This document shows positions 1 to 11,487 of a DNA stretch of 11,487 nucleotides, one piece after another. The position numbers and the translations under genes are program-made. Positions within the stretch are counted from its first letter, which is position 1, and each line of letters starts with the position of its first letter. The DNA comes from Candidatus Sumerlaeota bacterium. Its GTDB lineage: Bacteria > Sumerlaeota > Sumerlaeia > JADFCT01. The notes below the pieces were generated by a model. That model saw nothing but the letters and a program-made list of their open reading frames with translations, was not told the DNA's origin and did not search any database. The DNA is taken from NCBI GenBank assembly GCA_026398575.1, contig JAPLSP010000792.1:1-11487 (forward strand), given 5' to 3'.

Positions 1-99
1 CCGAAAACTCAAATGATGATCAGGCTCATGCTGATTCAAATCGCGGCTATTCACTCGGTATTATTGCCGCTTTTCACCCACTAATTCTTCACGGGAACC
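1..99. repeat. Left arm of an exact 99-bp inverted repeat
   Basis: Bases 1-99 are the exact reverse complement of 11348-11446. The match stops sharply at 99/100. At the left it is cut by the window edge, so its true extent there is unknown. Read on the plus strand it encodes a slice of the nuclease-like protein found at 10941-11487 (about 33 residues, ending LILHGN) and hits a stop at 105-107, so here it is only a gene fragment. A real duplication or inversion is possible. A length of exactly 99 is also a k-mer size commonly used by assemblers, so a de Bruijn-graph branch or a chimeric join is at least as likely. Confidence 0.9.
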
Positions 100-1763: not shown

Positions 1764-1956
1764 GCGAGTTGTGCCGGGGCTCAGTCTGCCTCCGGGGCGC
1801 AATGCCCCAGCCTCCATGACTTGACAGCATAGCCGGGCAGTTTTCGGGCTGCAAGGCCAAAAATCAGCAACCGTCTCATGAATATGCATAAACAACTGAT
1901 ATTTAGAGCCTTATAAAGCAGCATTCGTGCATCGCCCAGCCAATTTCAGGCAAAAT

Positions 1957-2150
1957 CACGGCGTGCTTTTGGCGAAGCACGGCGTGCTTTTAGTAAAGCA
2001 CGGTAGGCTCTTAGCAAAGCACGGTGTGCTCTTACCAAAGCACGGTGTGCTCTTAGCAAAGCACGGTGTGCTCTTAGTAAAGCACGGTGTGCTCTTAGTA
2101 AAGCACGGCGTGCTCTTATCGGAGCACGGCGGACTCTTAACAAAGCACGG
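1957..2150. repeat. Array of nine 21-bp tandem repeats plus a 5-bp partial unit
   Basis: CACGG recurs at 1957, 1978, 1999, 2020, 2041, 2062, 2083, 2104, 2125 and 2146, exactly 21 bp apart each time. The core is CACGGTGTGCTCTTA, followed by a variable 6-base part, usually GCAAAG or GTAAAG. Units 6 and 7 are identical; units 1, 2, 8 and 9 differ most, the usual pattern for a tandem array that turns over in its middle. AGCAC-GGT-GTGCT, a dyad with 5-bp arms, forms across several unit junctions. Unit length is a multiple of three, so frames stay open on both strands (heptads like KHGVLLA or TPCFAKS), but substitutions are not biased to silent positions and no ribosome-binding site precedes the plus-strand frame. 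It lies 23 bp beyond the GH95-like stop codon. Function is unknown: protein-binding array, RNA hairpin series or plain minisatellite. Confidence 0.92.
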
Positions 2151-2173
2151 TTGAAATTGCGCTCCACCCCCAA

Positions 2174-4915: not shown

Positions 4916-6019
4916 CTATTGCTTCAACAGTTCCACCATGGCCTTACCCATGGCTTCACCGACGTCCATGTAGACCTTGGCATTGCCGCCGTAATGACCA
5001 TTCCCGCTACCGCCACGGGCCATGTCGTGGGTGTAGACGGTCGCCACATTGCCTTTGAACTCCGGGTACTTTCCAGTGCTGCCGTCAACCGCCAGATGGG
5101 CGTTCATCACGGTTTCGGTGTTGCCTCCGCAACCCTTGGCCGCTTCACCCAGCGTCGCAATGACGAATTTCGCATTGGGGGCATCGAAGTCCTTGCGCAG
5201 CGACTTGATCACCTTGACGAGATTCTCCTCGTAGTGCATGGAAAGCGCTTCGCTTCCACAATCCCGCTCACCCTGCCACCACAGGAACCCGGCTACTTCA
5301 TAGCCCTTGGCGCCTGGGTAATACTTATCGAGTTCGGACAGGATCTTCTTGGCATTGGCCACGTCGTCGTCGTACTGCTTGCCGGCGTACCACCCGATTG
5401 GCTGCGGCTGGGTTCCCTTTTCCCATCGATCGGGCGACTCCTTATAACCGGCGTAGGTGTACGTCACTTGCTTGCCCGTCTTCTTGTCCGTGGTCGTGAA
5501 ATCATAACCCTTGCTTCCGGGAGGCAGGAGGTCCCAACCCAGGGCGCGGTTGCCAATGCAGCTCTTGAGGAGCATGACGGGCTCGTCCAAGAAGTCGCCG
5601 AGCTCGTGCCCAAGGCCAAATTCGATCCCCATCTTGCCTTTGCCGACCTTCAACGCTTCGTTGTGAAGGACGCTCATGCCGCCGCCCTTGGCAACCATGA
5701 CCTGCACGTTCCGGACGTCGTTTCTCTCCGTCCAGTTGCCGGCGCCATCCACGAGGTATGGATAGAGTTTCTCGCTTTTAACGGCCTTTTCCAAGCTTTC
5801 ACCCTTGTCACCGGAGATATTCCCCATGCCGACCATGTTGGACTGTCCCAACAGGATGAAGACCTTGACCGGCTTCGTCATGTCCGCTGGTTTGCCGCCC
5901 GGCTTCGGCAATTGTTTTTTCGGATCCGTCTCGATCTTCTCCGCTGCCGACACGCCGGCAACGCCCATGAGCGCCACCGCCAGCAGACACACCACACCCA
6001 ACAATGTTCTTCTTTTCAT
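4916..6019 (-). CDS. Secreted SASA-type (sialate O-acetylesterase-like) carbohydrate esterase 1
   Basis: I place the start at the ATG at 6019 (367 residues): AAGGAG lies eight bases upstream, and an overlapping GTG at 6022 would sit too close. A signal peptide ends near GVSAA (about residue 25). The SGNH/GDSL-like esterase core begins KVFILLGQSNMVGMG, with the likely nucleophile S60. Other family blocks are KGGGM (about 111-115), CIGNRALGWDLLPPGS (about 154-169), FLWWQGE (245-251) and a C-terminal HYGGNAKVYMDVGEAMG containing the likely catalytic H342. The classical Asp three residues before the His is not there, so E251 or another acid may complete the triad. The family removes O-acetyl groups from sugars; the substrate here is inferred from the GH neighbours. 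It is clearly paralogous to 8236-9363. It lies 78 bp downstream of the transglutaminase-like gene, and the two share an AACAAA-GGAGACA leader. Confidence 0.85.
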   Translation of the reverse strand: MKRRTLLGVVCLLAVALMGVAGVSAAEKIETDPKKQLPKPGGKPADMTKPVKVFILLGQSNMVGMGNISGDKGESLEKAVKSEKLYPYLVDGAGNWTERNDVRNVQVMVAKGGGMSVLHNEALKVGKGKMGIEFGLGHELGDFLDEPVMLLKSCIGNRALGWDLLPPGSKGYDFTTTDKKTGKQVTYTYAGYKESPDRWEKGTQPQPIGWYAGKQYDDDVANAKKILSELDKYYPGAKGYEVAGFLWWQGERDCGSEALSMHYEENLVKVIKSLRKDFDAPNAKFVIATLGEAAKGCGGNTETVMNAHLAVDGSTGKYPEFKGNVATVYTHDMARGGSGNGHYGGNAKVYMDVGEAMGKAMVELLKQ

Positions 6020-6097
6020 CACTCTGTCTCCTTTTGTTTATGGTCGCCGATCCGATCATGCGTTGCGAACTTCGTTTCGATTTCCTGTTTTTTTCTG

Positions 6098-8235: not shown

Positions 8236-9363
8236 CTATTTCTTCAACAACTCCGCCATGGCCCAGCCCAGCGCGTTGCCGACTTCCATATAGGTCTCGG
8301 CATTTCGATTATAGTGATAGCCTTGATTCTTGGGGGAGACACCGACCTCTCTCCAGAAATCCCGGGAGTCCACGCACTTCACGTTGCCGGCGAACTCGGG
8401 GTGCTTCTTGGCATCGTTCATCGCAAGCTGCGCTTCGGCGATCAGCAGCCCGAAGCTCTCGCGCCCGGGATTCCCGCAGCCCACGGCCAGCACAAAGGGC
8501 GCGTTGGGAGCATTGTAATCCTTGCGCAGGTTCTTGATCAGATTCACCAGGTTCTGCTCGTAGCGGCTGGCATGGGCCGCATTCTGATCCTTGTGCCCCT
8601 GCCACCAGACAAAACCGGCTATTTCATACTTTTCGGCGCCAGGATAATACTTGCCAAGCTCACTCAGGACCTTCTTGGCGTTCGCCATGTCGTCGTCATA
8701 CTGCTTGCCGGCATACCATTCGATGACTTTCCCGGTTTTTTTATCAATCCATGCGGGAGGCTTCGTCGCCGTGCCTTTGTCCTTGTCCATATCCCAGGAA
8801 TCAGGCGAGTCCTTGTATCCCGCATAGATCCTGCCATCGACAACGAACCGCTCACTCCCCGGCGGCAGAAGATCCCAGCCCAGACTGCGGTTCCCGATGC
8901 AGCTCTTGAGCACCAGCACAGGTTCGTTTAACAACTGCCCCATGATATGGCCAAACGCCACTTCCGGCCCGATCGTCCCGCCTTTGACCGTCAGCCATTC
9001 ATTATGATTCACCTGCATGCCACCACCTCTGCCAGGCATCACATGGACGTATCTGACATCGCTTCTCTCGGTCCATTTGCCCGCATCATCTATCAGATAG
9101 GGGTATCGCTTTTCCGTCTTGGTCAGATACCCCAGCGTTCCCGTGGTGGTGTCCGGGCCGACCTCTCCCATGCCGAGCATGTTGGACTGCCCCATCAGGA
9201 TGAACACCTTGACCGGCTTCTTCATGTCCGCCGGCTTATTGTCCGGCTTCGGCAATTGATGCTTTGGATCCGTATCGAATTTCTCCGCCGCCGCTGCGCT
9301 GGCGACGCCCAGTGACGTCGCCGCCAGCAGACATGCCACACCAAATAGTGTTCTCTTGTTCAT
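8236..9363 (-). CDS. Secreted SASA-type carbohydrate esterase 2, paralogue of the gene at 4916-6019
   Basis: The frame is open to an ATG at 9402, but the start at 9363 (375 residues) fits better: it has an AGAGG sequence seven bases upstream and puts the signal peptide (MNKRTLFGVACLLAA onward) in register with the paralogue. The mature part begins with the same KPADM-KKPVKVFIL block. Core motifs are GQSNMLGMG with likely nucleophile S60, GRGGGM (111-116), CIGNRSLGWDLLPPGS (155-170), FVWWQGHKD (251-259) and HYNRNAETYMEVGNALG with likely catalytic H350. Where the paralogue has WWQGE this protein has WWQGH (H257), so the two active sites differ and may take different acylated sugars. It is the first gene of the leftward run, and its product is expected outside the cytoplasm. 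The 281-bp divergent gap to the GH5 gene should hold the promoter of this operon. Confidence 0.85.
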   Translation of the reverse strand: MNKRTLFGVACLLAATSLGVASAAAAEKFDTDPKHQLPKPDNKPADMKKPVKVFILMGQSNMLGMGEVGPDTTTGTLGYLTKTEKRYPYLIDDAGKWTERSDVRYVHVMPGRGGGMQVNHNEWLTVKGGTIGPEVAFGHIMGQLLNEPVLVLKSCIGNRSLGWDLLPPGSERFVVDGRIYAGYKDSPDSWDMDKDKGTATKPPAWIDKKTGKVIEWYAGKQYDDDMANAKKVLSELGKYYPGAEKYEIAGFVWWQGHKDQNAAHASRYEQNLVNLIKNLRKDYNAPNAPFVLAVGCGNPGRESFGLLIAEAQLAMNDAKKHPEFAGNVKCVDSRDFWREVGVSPKNQGYHYNRNAETYMEVGNALGWAMAELLKK

Positions 9364-9644
9364 AATTCTGCCTCTTTTCATTGGTTTGTTGTTGTTGATC
9401 ATCGAGGCATTTTCCCAAGCATGATCGCTCTAGAATAAAAATGATGCCTCATCATCGGAAACAGGCGCGCATGCGCCGCTCACACGCGCTCTTTGAGCGA
9501 TCGTTCCGAAAATCATGCGCCAGGAAATGCCGGCGGAACAAGAGATTATCAACTTGCCCTTTCAAAGTCCCATCCGTGAGGAGCTCGCGAATCGCCCTGC
9601 ATGGAGAATTTCCTTTCATTCGCCGAAACAGCGGCGATAGAATC
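9364..9644. promoter_or_regulatory. Divergent intergenic region between esterase 2 and GH5, with a 15-bp dyad
   Basis: This is the only gap between divergent genes, so it should carry promoters for both directions. ATGATG-CCT-CATCAT at 9441-9455 is a perfect dyad. On the minus strand a poor TTTCCG / 17 bp / TATTCT pair brackets it (the -10 is the complement of 9432-9437), which would put the dyad in the promoter spacer, a typical place for a repressor. GCGCATGCGC at 9467-9476 is a perfect palindrome. I see no convincing plus-strand promoter. An Arg-rich open frame from 9441 leads into the GH5 gene but lacks a ribosome-binding site. Confidence 0.35.
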
Positions 9645-9665
9645 ATGGGTATGAGACTTACGAAG

Positions 9666-9710
9666 ATGCATATTGGCGTCATGCATATTGGCACCCTACA
9701 TATTGGCGTC
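9666..9710 (+). repeat. Three in-frame 15-bp repeats inside the GH5 signal peptide
   Basis: ATGCATATTGGCGTC (9666-9680), ATGCATATTGGCACC (9681-9695) and CTACATATTGGCGTC (9696-9710) encode MHIGV, MHIGT and LHIGV in a row. They sit directly before the hydrophobic core MLALAGVTLLG, so they lengthen the n-region/h-region of the signal peptide. Confidence 0.9.
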
Positions 9711-10280
9711 ATGCTCGCGCTTGCGGGCGTTACCTTGTTGGGGCAGGTCAGGGCGATGGATATTTTCGAGCAGAACCGACTGCTGGGGCGCGGCGTGAAT
9801 ATCATCGGGTATGACCCGATCTGGAAAGGGCGCGAACAGGCGCAGTTTCAGGAGAAACATTTCCGCCTGCTGAAGGAAGCAGGGTTCAACAACGTGCGCG
9901 TCAACCTTCATTCCTTCCGCCATATAAAACGGGAACAGAAATGGGCGCTGCCGCAGGCATGGTGGGATACACTCGACTGGGTGGTCAAACAGGCGACGCA
10001 GCAGGGCTTGCGCGCAATCCTCGACTGTCACGAATTCATGTCCATGGCGGAGGACCCGGAAGGGAACCATGAGCGCTTCCTGTCGTTCTGGGAACAGATG
10101 TCCGCCCATTTCAAGGACGCGCCGGATTCCGTATTGTTCGAGATACTGAACGAGCCCAACAAGAAGATGACGCCCGAACTCTGGAACCGGTATATGGGCG
10201 AGGCGCTGGCCCTGATCCGCGCCAACAATCCACAGCGCGCCGTGATCGTCGGGCCCGCCTTCTGGAACTCCATAGACCAC

Positions 10281-10334
10281 CTAGGAGTCTGTCGGAGAAC
10301 TCGGTTTTCTAAGGTATCTCCGACAAACTCCCAG
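10281..10334. mobile_element. Miniature inverted-repeat insertion in the GH5 gene
   Basis: GGAGTCTGTCGGAGA at 10284-10298 and TCTCCGACAAACTCC at 10317-10331 are inverted repeats matching at 14 of 15 positions, around an 18-base loop that contains the stop codon TAA (10310-10312). Deleting 50 bases restores the GH5 reading frame. The flanks are CTAG (10281-10284) and CCAG (10331-10334), which fits a 46-bp element with a 4-bp target duplication that has since changed by one base. The inferred empty site reads CAC-CTA-GCC-GAG. No transposase is encoded, so it would have been mobilised in trans, like a MITE. The family is not identified. Confidence 0.7.
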
Positions 10335-10814
10335 CCGAGCTCAAACTGCCCGAGCAGGATCGCAATCTGATCGTTACGGTGCACTACTACAAGCCCATGG
10401 AGTTCACGCACCAGGGCGCGCCGTGGTCCCCCCAGCACAAGGACAAAACCGGCGTGGAATGGACCGCGACGGAGGCGCAGCAAAAGGCCATCCGGGATGA
10501 TTTCGCCAAGGCGGCGGCCTGGGCCAAGGCGAACAACCGGCCCATCTTTCTCGGCGAATTCGGCGCCTACGACAAAGCCCCCATGCCCTCGCGCGTGGCC
10601 TATACGGATTGCGTCGCCCGCACGGCGGAGTCTTTCGGCTGGAGCTGGGCCTACTGGCAGTTCGACAGCGACTTCATCCTCTGGGACATGAAGTCCGACG
10701 CCTGGGTCGAGCCCATTCGCCGCGCTCTGATCCCGCAGGCGAAATAGCGTCCCGCCGCGCCCGCAACCATCAGCGGAATATGTTCTGCCCCCGCCGCTAT
10801 ATAGTTGATTAACT

Positions 10815-10940: not shown

Positions 10941-11487
10941 TCAAATCATGGTGAAATCCAAAACATATGAACAGACTGCAATGCCATTCTTTGAAACTGA
11001 CTTAGCTTGAATTGCAAGTGCATCACGAAGATTCTGGATAGATTCAGTGTATTTCCTAGTATCCTCCGGATCCCAACGGCGCGAGGCAAAATAGCAAACA
11101 ACATACAAACCTCTGCCGGGACTAGGTACGCGCAAGTATTCAGCCGCTAATTGCGTTTCCATTGCTGTGTTTAGCTCAGTATTCCAACAGCCCTTGACTT
11201 CGATAACTGCGGTCAAACGCTTAGAAGAAACTGCTGCGCCGGATGTCGAAATTGCATCAATATGAATATCTGTTCTTTTCCCTACCCCCTGCGAATGATG
11301 GCGATAAACTTCTACCTCTCTATTTATGATTATACCTTTATTAACTAGGTTCCCGTGAAGAATTAGTGGGTGAAAAGCGGCAATAATACCGAGTGAATAG
11401 CCGCGATTTGAATCAGCATGAGCCTGATCATCATTTGAGTTTTCGGAGGCATGGGAGGAAATGGAAAAAGCGGAATAACCGGCTCTG
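10941..11487 (-). CDS. C-terminal part of a PD-(D/E)XK nuclease-like protein, 5-prime end outside the window
   Basis: The frame is open from the window edge (11486) to the TGA at 10941-10943, giving 181 visible residues; the only candidate start inside, a TTG at 11216, would cut the domain in half, so the gene continues beyond the window. Counting from the edge, a Ser/Asn-rich stretch leads into GIIINREVEV (51-60), RTDIHIDA (71-78) and AVIEVKGCWN (93-102). This order of E57, D73 or D77 and E96-V-K98 is the signature of the PD-(D/E)XK restriction-like nuclease fold. The rest (AMETQLAAEYL, then GLYVVCYFASRRWDPED) matches the end of large multidomain proteins of that fold seen in possible defence contexts, though the missing part is needed to decide. 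It is more AT-rich than the core genes. Bases 11348-11446 also occur inverted at 1-99. Confidence 0.75.
   Translation of the reverse strand, partial: RAGYSAFSISSHASENSNDDQAHADSNRGYSLGIIAAFHPLILHGNLVNKGIIINREVEVYRHHSQGVGKRTDIHIDAISTSGAAVSSKRLTAVIEVKGCWNTELNTAMETQLAAEYLRVPSPGRGLYVVCYFASRRWDPEDTRKYTESIQNLRDALAIQAKSVSKNGIAVCSYVLDFTMI
11348..11446. repeat. Right arm of the exact 99-bp inverted repeat
   Basis: This is the exact reverse complement of 1-99. It lies inside the open frame of the nuclease-like gene (visible residues about 15-47), which reads through it without interruption on both sides. This copy is therefore the original context and the copy at 1-99 is the transplanted or artefactual one. 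Confidence 0.9.

What the first reader, a model, noticed from the sequence alone, without database searches (positions are those of the whole stretch)
10281..10334. A 50-bp MITE-like palindrome breaks a GH5 gene and can be removed exactly on paper
The 15-bp arms match 14/15 and flank an 18-base loop with a stop codon. Deleting 50 bases gives NSIDHLAELKLPEQD, a natural GH5 sequence, and leaves a CTAG target; the flanks CTAG and CCAG look like a duplicated 4-bp target with one change. Two intact catalytic Glu and a good second half imply a recent event. At 46 bp it would be a very short transposable unit, worth searching for genome-wide.
Basis: partly seen in the sequence, partly recalled or inferred. 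Interest (0 to 1): 0.72.

Follow-up and report, generated by a model that had tools for sequence, protein, structure and literature searches.

The report
IS1182-type miniature element in GH5 gene
A 46-base piece of mobile DNA, little more than the two end signals of an IS1182-type jumping gene, sits in and breaks a sugar-cutting enzyme gene of an uncultured bacterium; it is a very small member of a known kind.

Summary
Window 10285-10330 is a 46-bp core with inverted ends GAGTCTGTCGGAGA / GAGTTTGTCGGAGA between CTAG and CCAG. Of five excisions tried, only core plus one tetranucleotide (50 bp) restores the GH5 frame; none of the 120 listed orthologues has extra residues there. The ends and the CTAG flank are those of a subgroup of IS1182-family insertion sequences: 6 of 6 transposases scanned from complete elements with such ends pass the NCBIfam IS1182 cut-off. 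CTAG plus this end occurs in 41 of 387 genomes of the Verrucomicrobiota (374 matches by my sum, 7 for the reversed control), often as pairs 33-235 bp long. One IS copy lies between AAAG and AAAG, so the duplication is 4 bp. Best explanation: a non-autonomous IS1182-type MITE that inserted at the gene's only CTAG. Corrections: the loop's TAA is out of frame; the break is a frameshift, stop at 10368-10370. Copies in the source genome could not be sought (none held), and nearest genomes show none. New member of a known kind; modest interest.

The parts
9645..10283 (+). GH5 gene, first part (start codon is my choice; the open frame begins at 9441)
   Evidence: Pfam Cellulase PF00150, 101.3 bits; translation; ORF list
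10281..10284 (.). CTAG, left copy of the duplicated target; the only CTAG in 9645-10747
   Evidence: sequence; CTAG positions
10285..10298 (+). left terminal inverted repeat GAGTCTGTCGGAGA
   Evidence: the first 16 bases with CTAG are identical to the right end of the IS in L130 and to the end of the G083 elements
10299..10316 (.). 18-base spacer between the ends; its TAA is out of the gene's frame
10317..10330 (-). right terminal inverted repeat, GAGTTTGTCGGAGA on the minus strand, 13 of 14 to the left one
10331..10334 (.). CCAG, right copy of the duplicated target with one change
   Evidence: of 50 paired elements in the fetched loci 8 also differ by one base between the two flanks
10334..10747 (+). 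GH5 gene, second part, out of frame with the first as it stands
   Evidence: Pfam Cellulase PF00150, 55.9 bits
10368..10370 (+). stop codon reached by the first part after the frameshift

Best explanation
A non-autonomous IS1182-type miniature inverted-repeat element of 46 bp, essentially two terminal inverted repeats with 18 bases between them. It inserted at the only CTAG of a GH5 glycosidase gene of a member of the Verrucomicrobiota, presumably moved in trans by an IS1182-family transposase that recognises ends of the type (C/G)AG(C/T)(C/T)TGTCGGA. Staggered joining duplicated the 4-bp target, so 50 bp were gained, which shifts the frame and ends translation at 10368-10370. It probably arose by internal deletion of a longer MITE or IS. 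Shown: the ends, the flanks, the frame arithmetic, orthologues without an insert, relatives with the same ends and an IS1182 transposase, a 4-bp duplication in a relative, and short relatives that align as deleted forms of longer ones. Inferred: movement in trans, origin by deletion here, and loss of enzyme function.
For: Frame: of five excisions tried (54, 52, 50, 48 and 46 bp) only 50 bp gives an open gene. Orthologues: 0 of the 120 listed relatives have a residue between the two joined positions. Ends: left end with CTAG is 16 of 16 to the right end of the IS in L130 and 20 of 20 to the right end of a 139-bp element in L097. Transposase: 6 of 6 scanned proteins from complete elements with such ends exceed the NF033551 IS1182 cut-off of 270 (L130 366.9; L138 326.1; L139 347; L140 340.4; L141 343.4; L247 326.9); L247 has CAGTCTGTCGGAGA at both ends, one base from the window's left arm. 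Spread: 41 of 387 genomes, 374 matches by my sum against 7 of the reversed control. Pairs: 50 distinct paired elements, 40 with identical tetranucleotides (39 CTAG, 1 AAAG), 8 with one change, 2 with more. Duplication: one IS of G406 lies between AAAG and AAAG, two sister copies between CTAG and CTAG, one between CAAG and CTAG. Size: cores of 33, 34, 51, 52, 52, 64 and 66 bp exist elsewhere.
Against: No second copy could be sought in the source genome. The nearest genomes held, G009 and G237, have no match to CTAGSAGYYTGTCGGA; the window's own subtype CTAGGAGTYTGTCGGAGA with one mismatch gave 1 of 146 genomes, a lone site without CTAG, and a shorter form 0 of 9; with 3 mismatches, 28 genomes gave counts like the control. 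The interior has no significant match to L097. A symmetric short pattern found only 1 of 41 genomes. Most loci were fetched by a pattern that includes CTAG, so only the second flank is independent. The right flank is CCAG, not CTAG.
Confidence: 0.9

Rival explanations
1. An IS630/Tc1-mariner-type MITE of 48 bp that duplicated TA within a CTAG target.
For: The window alone cannot tell TA from CTAG: both predict the same 50-bp gain. That IS630 targets NTAN is stated in PMC5678879 (passage); its liking for CTAG is recalled.
Against: Elements with these ends encode IS1182 transposases in 6 of 6 scanned; an IS copy between AAAG and AAAG shows a 4-bp duplication. I did not search for IS630 transposases.
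Confidence: 0.04
2. A stem-loop that was a target of, or left behind by, an IS1272-like IS1182 element that replaces hairpins.
For: IS1272, an IS1182-family member, replaces stem-loops without duplication (PMC5678879 and PMC4923244, passages).
Against: 0 of 120 listed orthologues have extra residues there, so no ancestral hairpin is seen; the arms carry the IS ends themselves and the 4-bp duplication fits the frame.
Confidence: 0.02
3. A REP-type palindrome moved by a REP-associated tyrosine transposase.
For: Size and hairpin shape; GTAG-tagged REPs are reported in Verrucomicrobia (PMC3733652, passages).
Against: No GTAG or CGTC tag at either end of the hairpin; the ends match IS1182 elements instead. 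RAYT genes were not searched.
Confidence: 0.02
4. Assembly or amplification artefact, or a transcription terminator.
For: The contig has a perfect 99-nt inverted repeat near its two ends, which may be an assembly fault.
Against: An artefact would not place IS-type ends at a CTAG with a frame-fitting 4-bp duplication. No run of T follows either arm. The terminator scan calls nothing here but only allows loops of 3-8, so it is no test of this hairpin.
Confidence: 0.02

Closest known systems
ISMac2-related MITEs of Methanosarcina acetivorans (IS1182 family; PMC3852290, table passage)
   Same: MITEs ascribed to an IS1182-family partner; the table gives 160 bp, 14 copies with a last column of 4, and 169 bp, 7 copies with 0 in that column
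   Different: 160-169 bp against 46 bp; archaeal host; their sequences were not compared here
Complete IS1182-family elements in L130/L134, L138-L141 and L247
   Same: Ends (C/G)AG(C/T)(C/T)TGTCGG and CTAG flanks
   Different: 1.57-1.66 kb with a transposase gene; the window element has none
ISPse1 of Paracoccus seriniphilus (IS1182 family; PMC3281130, table passage)
   Same: Table row reads 1653 bp, 16/16 and 4, which I take as inverted repeats and a 4-bp direct repeat
   Different: Full-size element; end sequence not seen
IS1272 of staphylococci (IS1182 family; PMC5678879 and PMC4923244, passages)
   Same: Transposase family
   Different: Replaces stem-loops and makes no target duplication; here a 4-bp duplication fits
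QMITE1 of Coxiella burnetii (review PMC10969869, passage)
   Same: MITE copies as short as 39 bp are reported
   Different: Another family; not compared here

Membership tests
IS1182-family MITE | Terminal inverted repeats like those of an autonomous IS1182 element | tested here: met
   16 of 16 bases (with CTAG) of the left end, 14 of 16 of the right end, to the right end of the IS in L130; IS1182 transposase in 6 of 6 scanned
IS1182-family MITE | Target duplication of the length made by the IS (4 bp) | tested here: met
   50-bp gain from the frame test; CTAG and CCAG differ by one base; AAAG/AAAG around an IS of G406
IS1182-family MITE | Short and without a transposase gene | tested here: met
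   46 bp
IS1182-family MITE | Several dispersed copies in the host genome | not testable with these tools
   No genome held; dispersed short copies exist in other genomes, e.g. 5 of 58 bp in G083, three of which share one flank
IS1182-family MITE | Moved in trans by an IS1182 transposase | not testable with these tools
   Needs a mobility assay
IS630/Tc1-mariner MITE | TA duplication and ends of an IS630-family element | tested here: not met
   AAAG/AAAG duplication around an IS with such ends; transposases are IS1182; IS630 elements themselves were not searched
IS1272-type stem-loop replacement site | A hairpin at the site before insertion, and no duplication | tested here: not met
   0 of 120 listed orthologues have extra residues; 4-bp gain beyond the core
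REP | GTAG or CGTC tag at one end | tested here: not met
   Sequence of 10281-10334; tag definition from PMC3733652 (title and passages)

The most novel reading that the evidence does not exclude
Two IS1182 ends set almost back to back (33-66 bp) are themselves a mobile unit: IS1182 transposases of Verrucomicrobiota spread such minimal end pairs into CTAG sites, genes included, as a widespread class of very small transposable elements made again and again by internal deletion of about 160-bp MITEs.
Probability: 0.35. Interest if true: 0.5.

Novelty: new member of a known kind. Interest (0 to 1): 0.33.

Why it matters
It is a clean, frame-checked insertion of a 46-bp unit into a gene, near the short end of reported prokaryotic MITE copies, and it ties a CTAG-flanked small repeat of Verrucomicrobiota to IS1182. 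Genes broken in this way look like two fragments with no visible IS, which annotators can miss. It raises a testable question: how short a spacer between two ends can a DDE transposase still use?

Tried and rejected
Own-genome search: no genome held. BLAST of the 60-bp site in plasmids and phages: one partial hit each (45% and 30% of the query), taken as chance. Symmetric pattern TGTCGGAGAN{8,38}TCTCCGACA: 0 of 25 genomes and 3 of 387, the spacers unlike the window's. A like pattern in viral contigs gave 2 stretches, one and the same hairpin beside what looks by eye like a tRNA gene. One-end pattern with 3 mismatches in 28 genomes: matches in 21, at about control level. Viral scans GAGTYTGTCGGAGAAC (19 stretches) and GAGTYTGTCGGAGATAC (11): of the 29 new loci none has CTAG next to the end and none a partner within 2.5 kb of held sequence; L266 shares 20 bases of the left end but no partner. 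Interior homology with L097: alignment score 17.0 against 17.9 at the 95% point of 500 shuffles, so not significant. GH5 in viral contigs: none. Rfam at gathering scores: none.

Rows dropped: pairs with more than one mismatch in the two 11-base ends together were left out, among them the 58-bp G083 family, the 43-bp L184, the 30-bp L172 and the 170-bp L231. Two of the 50 kept rows (L123, L135) have unrelated flanks and are probably chance; they are counted. L180 (rows 90 and 93 or nested) and L194 (235 bp) were not examined further. Only 6 of the elements of IS size had their transposase scanned.

Literature, seen as follows. Listings: IS1182 + CTAG + MITE, 0 papers; IS1182 + CTAG, 2; IS1182 + miniature inverted, 6; IS1182 + palindrom, 50, of which 20 listed; IS1272 + inverted repeat, 19, 15 listed; MITE + Verrucomicrobi, 8; IS1182 + target site duplication, 6; a six-term MITE search, 17, 15 listed. 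Passages only: PMC8027508, PMC3281130, PMC5678879, PMC3852290, PMC4923244, PMC3733652, PMC10969869. I saw no report of this element, but only these searches of this library were made; ISfinder was not available.

Full report
What is there. Window 10281-10334 reads CTAG, a 14-base arm, 18 bases, a second arm that pairs with the first at 13 of 14 positions, then CCAG; with the adjoining G/C pair the arms are 14 of 15. No other hairpin of that class is in the window, and 10 mononucleotide shuffles gave none; folding beats most dinucleotide shuffles. In 1.26 Mb of GH5-bearing loci, 172 hairpin hits of like size were found, none with CTAG beside it or TGTCGG in the left arm.

The gene. Both parts match Pfam Cellulase (GH5). 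As it stands, the frame runs through the hairpin and stops at 10368-10370; the TAA in the loop is in another frame. Five excisions were compared: removal of the 46-bp core plus one tetranucleotide (50 bp) gives an open 350-aa protein; removal of 54, 52, 48 or 46 bp leaves an early stop. The joined protein found 5126 relatives among 7999 scored candidates; the 120 listed were aligned (63-75% identity) and none has a residue inserted at the junction. Where the sources name an organism it is Verrucomicrobiota or a group in it; by a 702-aa neighbour the closest genomes among 387 are G237 and G009 (68%). So the gain was 50 bp, as expected of 46 bp plus a duplicated 4-bp target. CTAG occurs 9 times in the window (about 43 expected from base composition) and once in the gene region, at the insertion.

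What the ends are. A viral-contig scan for TAGGAGTCTGTCGGA (11 stretches) gave a 139-bp element between two CTAGs (L097) and 1.59-kb elements (L130, L134) with ends of this type. The L130 transposase is IS1182 family (366.9 bits, cut-off 270). With it as query, 23 of 387 genomes of the phylum of G001 (record L003, titled Verrucomicrobiota) matched at 1e-10. Several complete copies start and end with CTAG|CAG(C/T)(C/T)TGTCGG (L138, L139, L140, L141, L162, L163); the four scanned transposases are IS1182 above cut-off. More distant IS1182 relatives in the same list have other ends (for example L147, L151, L152, L158), so this is a subgroup. An IS in the genome of L061 (titled Chloroflexi) has CAGTCTGTCGGAGA at both ends, one base from the window's left arm, and an IS1182 transposase of 326.9 bits.

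How common. CTAGSAGYYTGTCGGA occurs in 41 of 387 genomes of that phylum; by my sum of the table 374 matches, against 7 of the reversed control. It also occurs in 4 of 50 genomes that hold more distant GH5 loci. Of 50 distinct paired elements in the fetched loci (at most one mismatch in both ends together), 34 are 33-235 bp and 16 are 1534-1735 bp; 40 have identical tetranucleotides on the two sides (39 CTAG, 1 AAAG), 8 differ by one base as the window does, 2 by more. Most loci were fetched by a pattern with CTAG, so only the second flank is independent. In G406 one IS copy lies between AAAG and AAAG, two between CTAG and CTAG, one between CAAG and CTAG: a 4-bp duplication, not TA.

Size. Cores of 33, 34, 51, 52, 52, 64 and 66 bp are in the table, and a 58-bp family in G083 has 5 copies with differing right flanks, three of them sharing a left flank. 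The 34-bp form of G212 matches a 160-bp element of the same genome at 27 of its first 28 bases, and the 64-bp form of G343 matches its 160-bp relative at 40 of the last 43 (sequences; counted by me). Short forms thus look like internal deletion products. Whether the shortest ones moved at that size or shrank in place is open, and the window's frame arithmetic does not tell the two apart.

Mechanism. Most likely an IS1182 transposase bound the two ends of this element, or of a longer parent, and joined it across a 4-bp stagger at the CTAG of the GH5 gene; gap filling gave two CTAGs, one of which later became CCAG. The joining chemistry and the order of events are inference. The alternatives (IS630-type with TA, IS1272-like stem-loop replacement, REP, artefact) each fail a test, as listed.

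Against. Nothing of this subtype is seen in the nearest genomes held, the source genome is not available, the interior has no significant match, and no transposase source in the host is seen.

Known or new. MITEs ascribed to an IS1182 partner, 160 and 169 bp, are in print (PMC3852290, passages), and MITE copies of 39 bp are reported for another family (PMC10969869, passage). I therefore file it as a new, very short member of a known kind.

Noticed in passing
window 1-99 and 11348-11446: A perfect 99-nt inverted repeat near the two ends of the window; the copies diverge beside the CTAG at 11345. Perhaps an assembly fault.
   Followed up: partly
window 1953-2151: A 21-bp tandem repeat of 9.5 copies just beyond the stop end (2174, minus strand) of a GH95-like gene.
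   Followed up: no
window 9666-9714: A 15-bp tandem repeat, 3.3 copies, in the N-terminal coding part of the GH5 gene.
   Followed up: no
window 4916-6022 and 8236-9402: Two SASA-domain esterase-like genes with repeated stretches of 74-80% DNA identity, on either side of a 702-aa protein without a Pfam match.
   Followed up: no
genome G343: 50 forward and 50 reverse matches to the IS1182 end pattern are printed, but the transposase query found only a partial match with a stop.
   Followed up: partly
L130 96-1697: The flanks of this IS (atcgttCTAG and CTAGtagaacgat) are near mirror images, so the target looks palindromic beyond CTAG.
   Followed up: no
L129 112-126 and L131 6367-6381: Two viral contigs of one metagenome both carry CTAGGAGTCTGTCGGACTTTCCAAG close to a contig end.
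   Followed up: no
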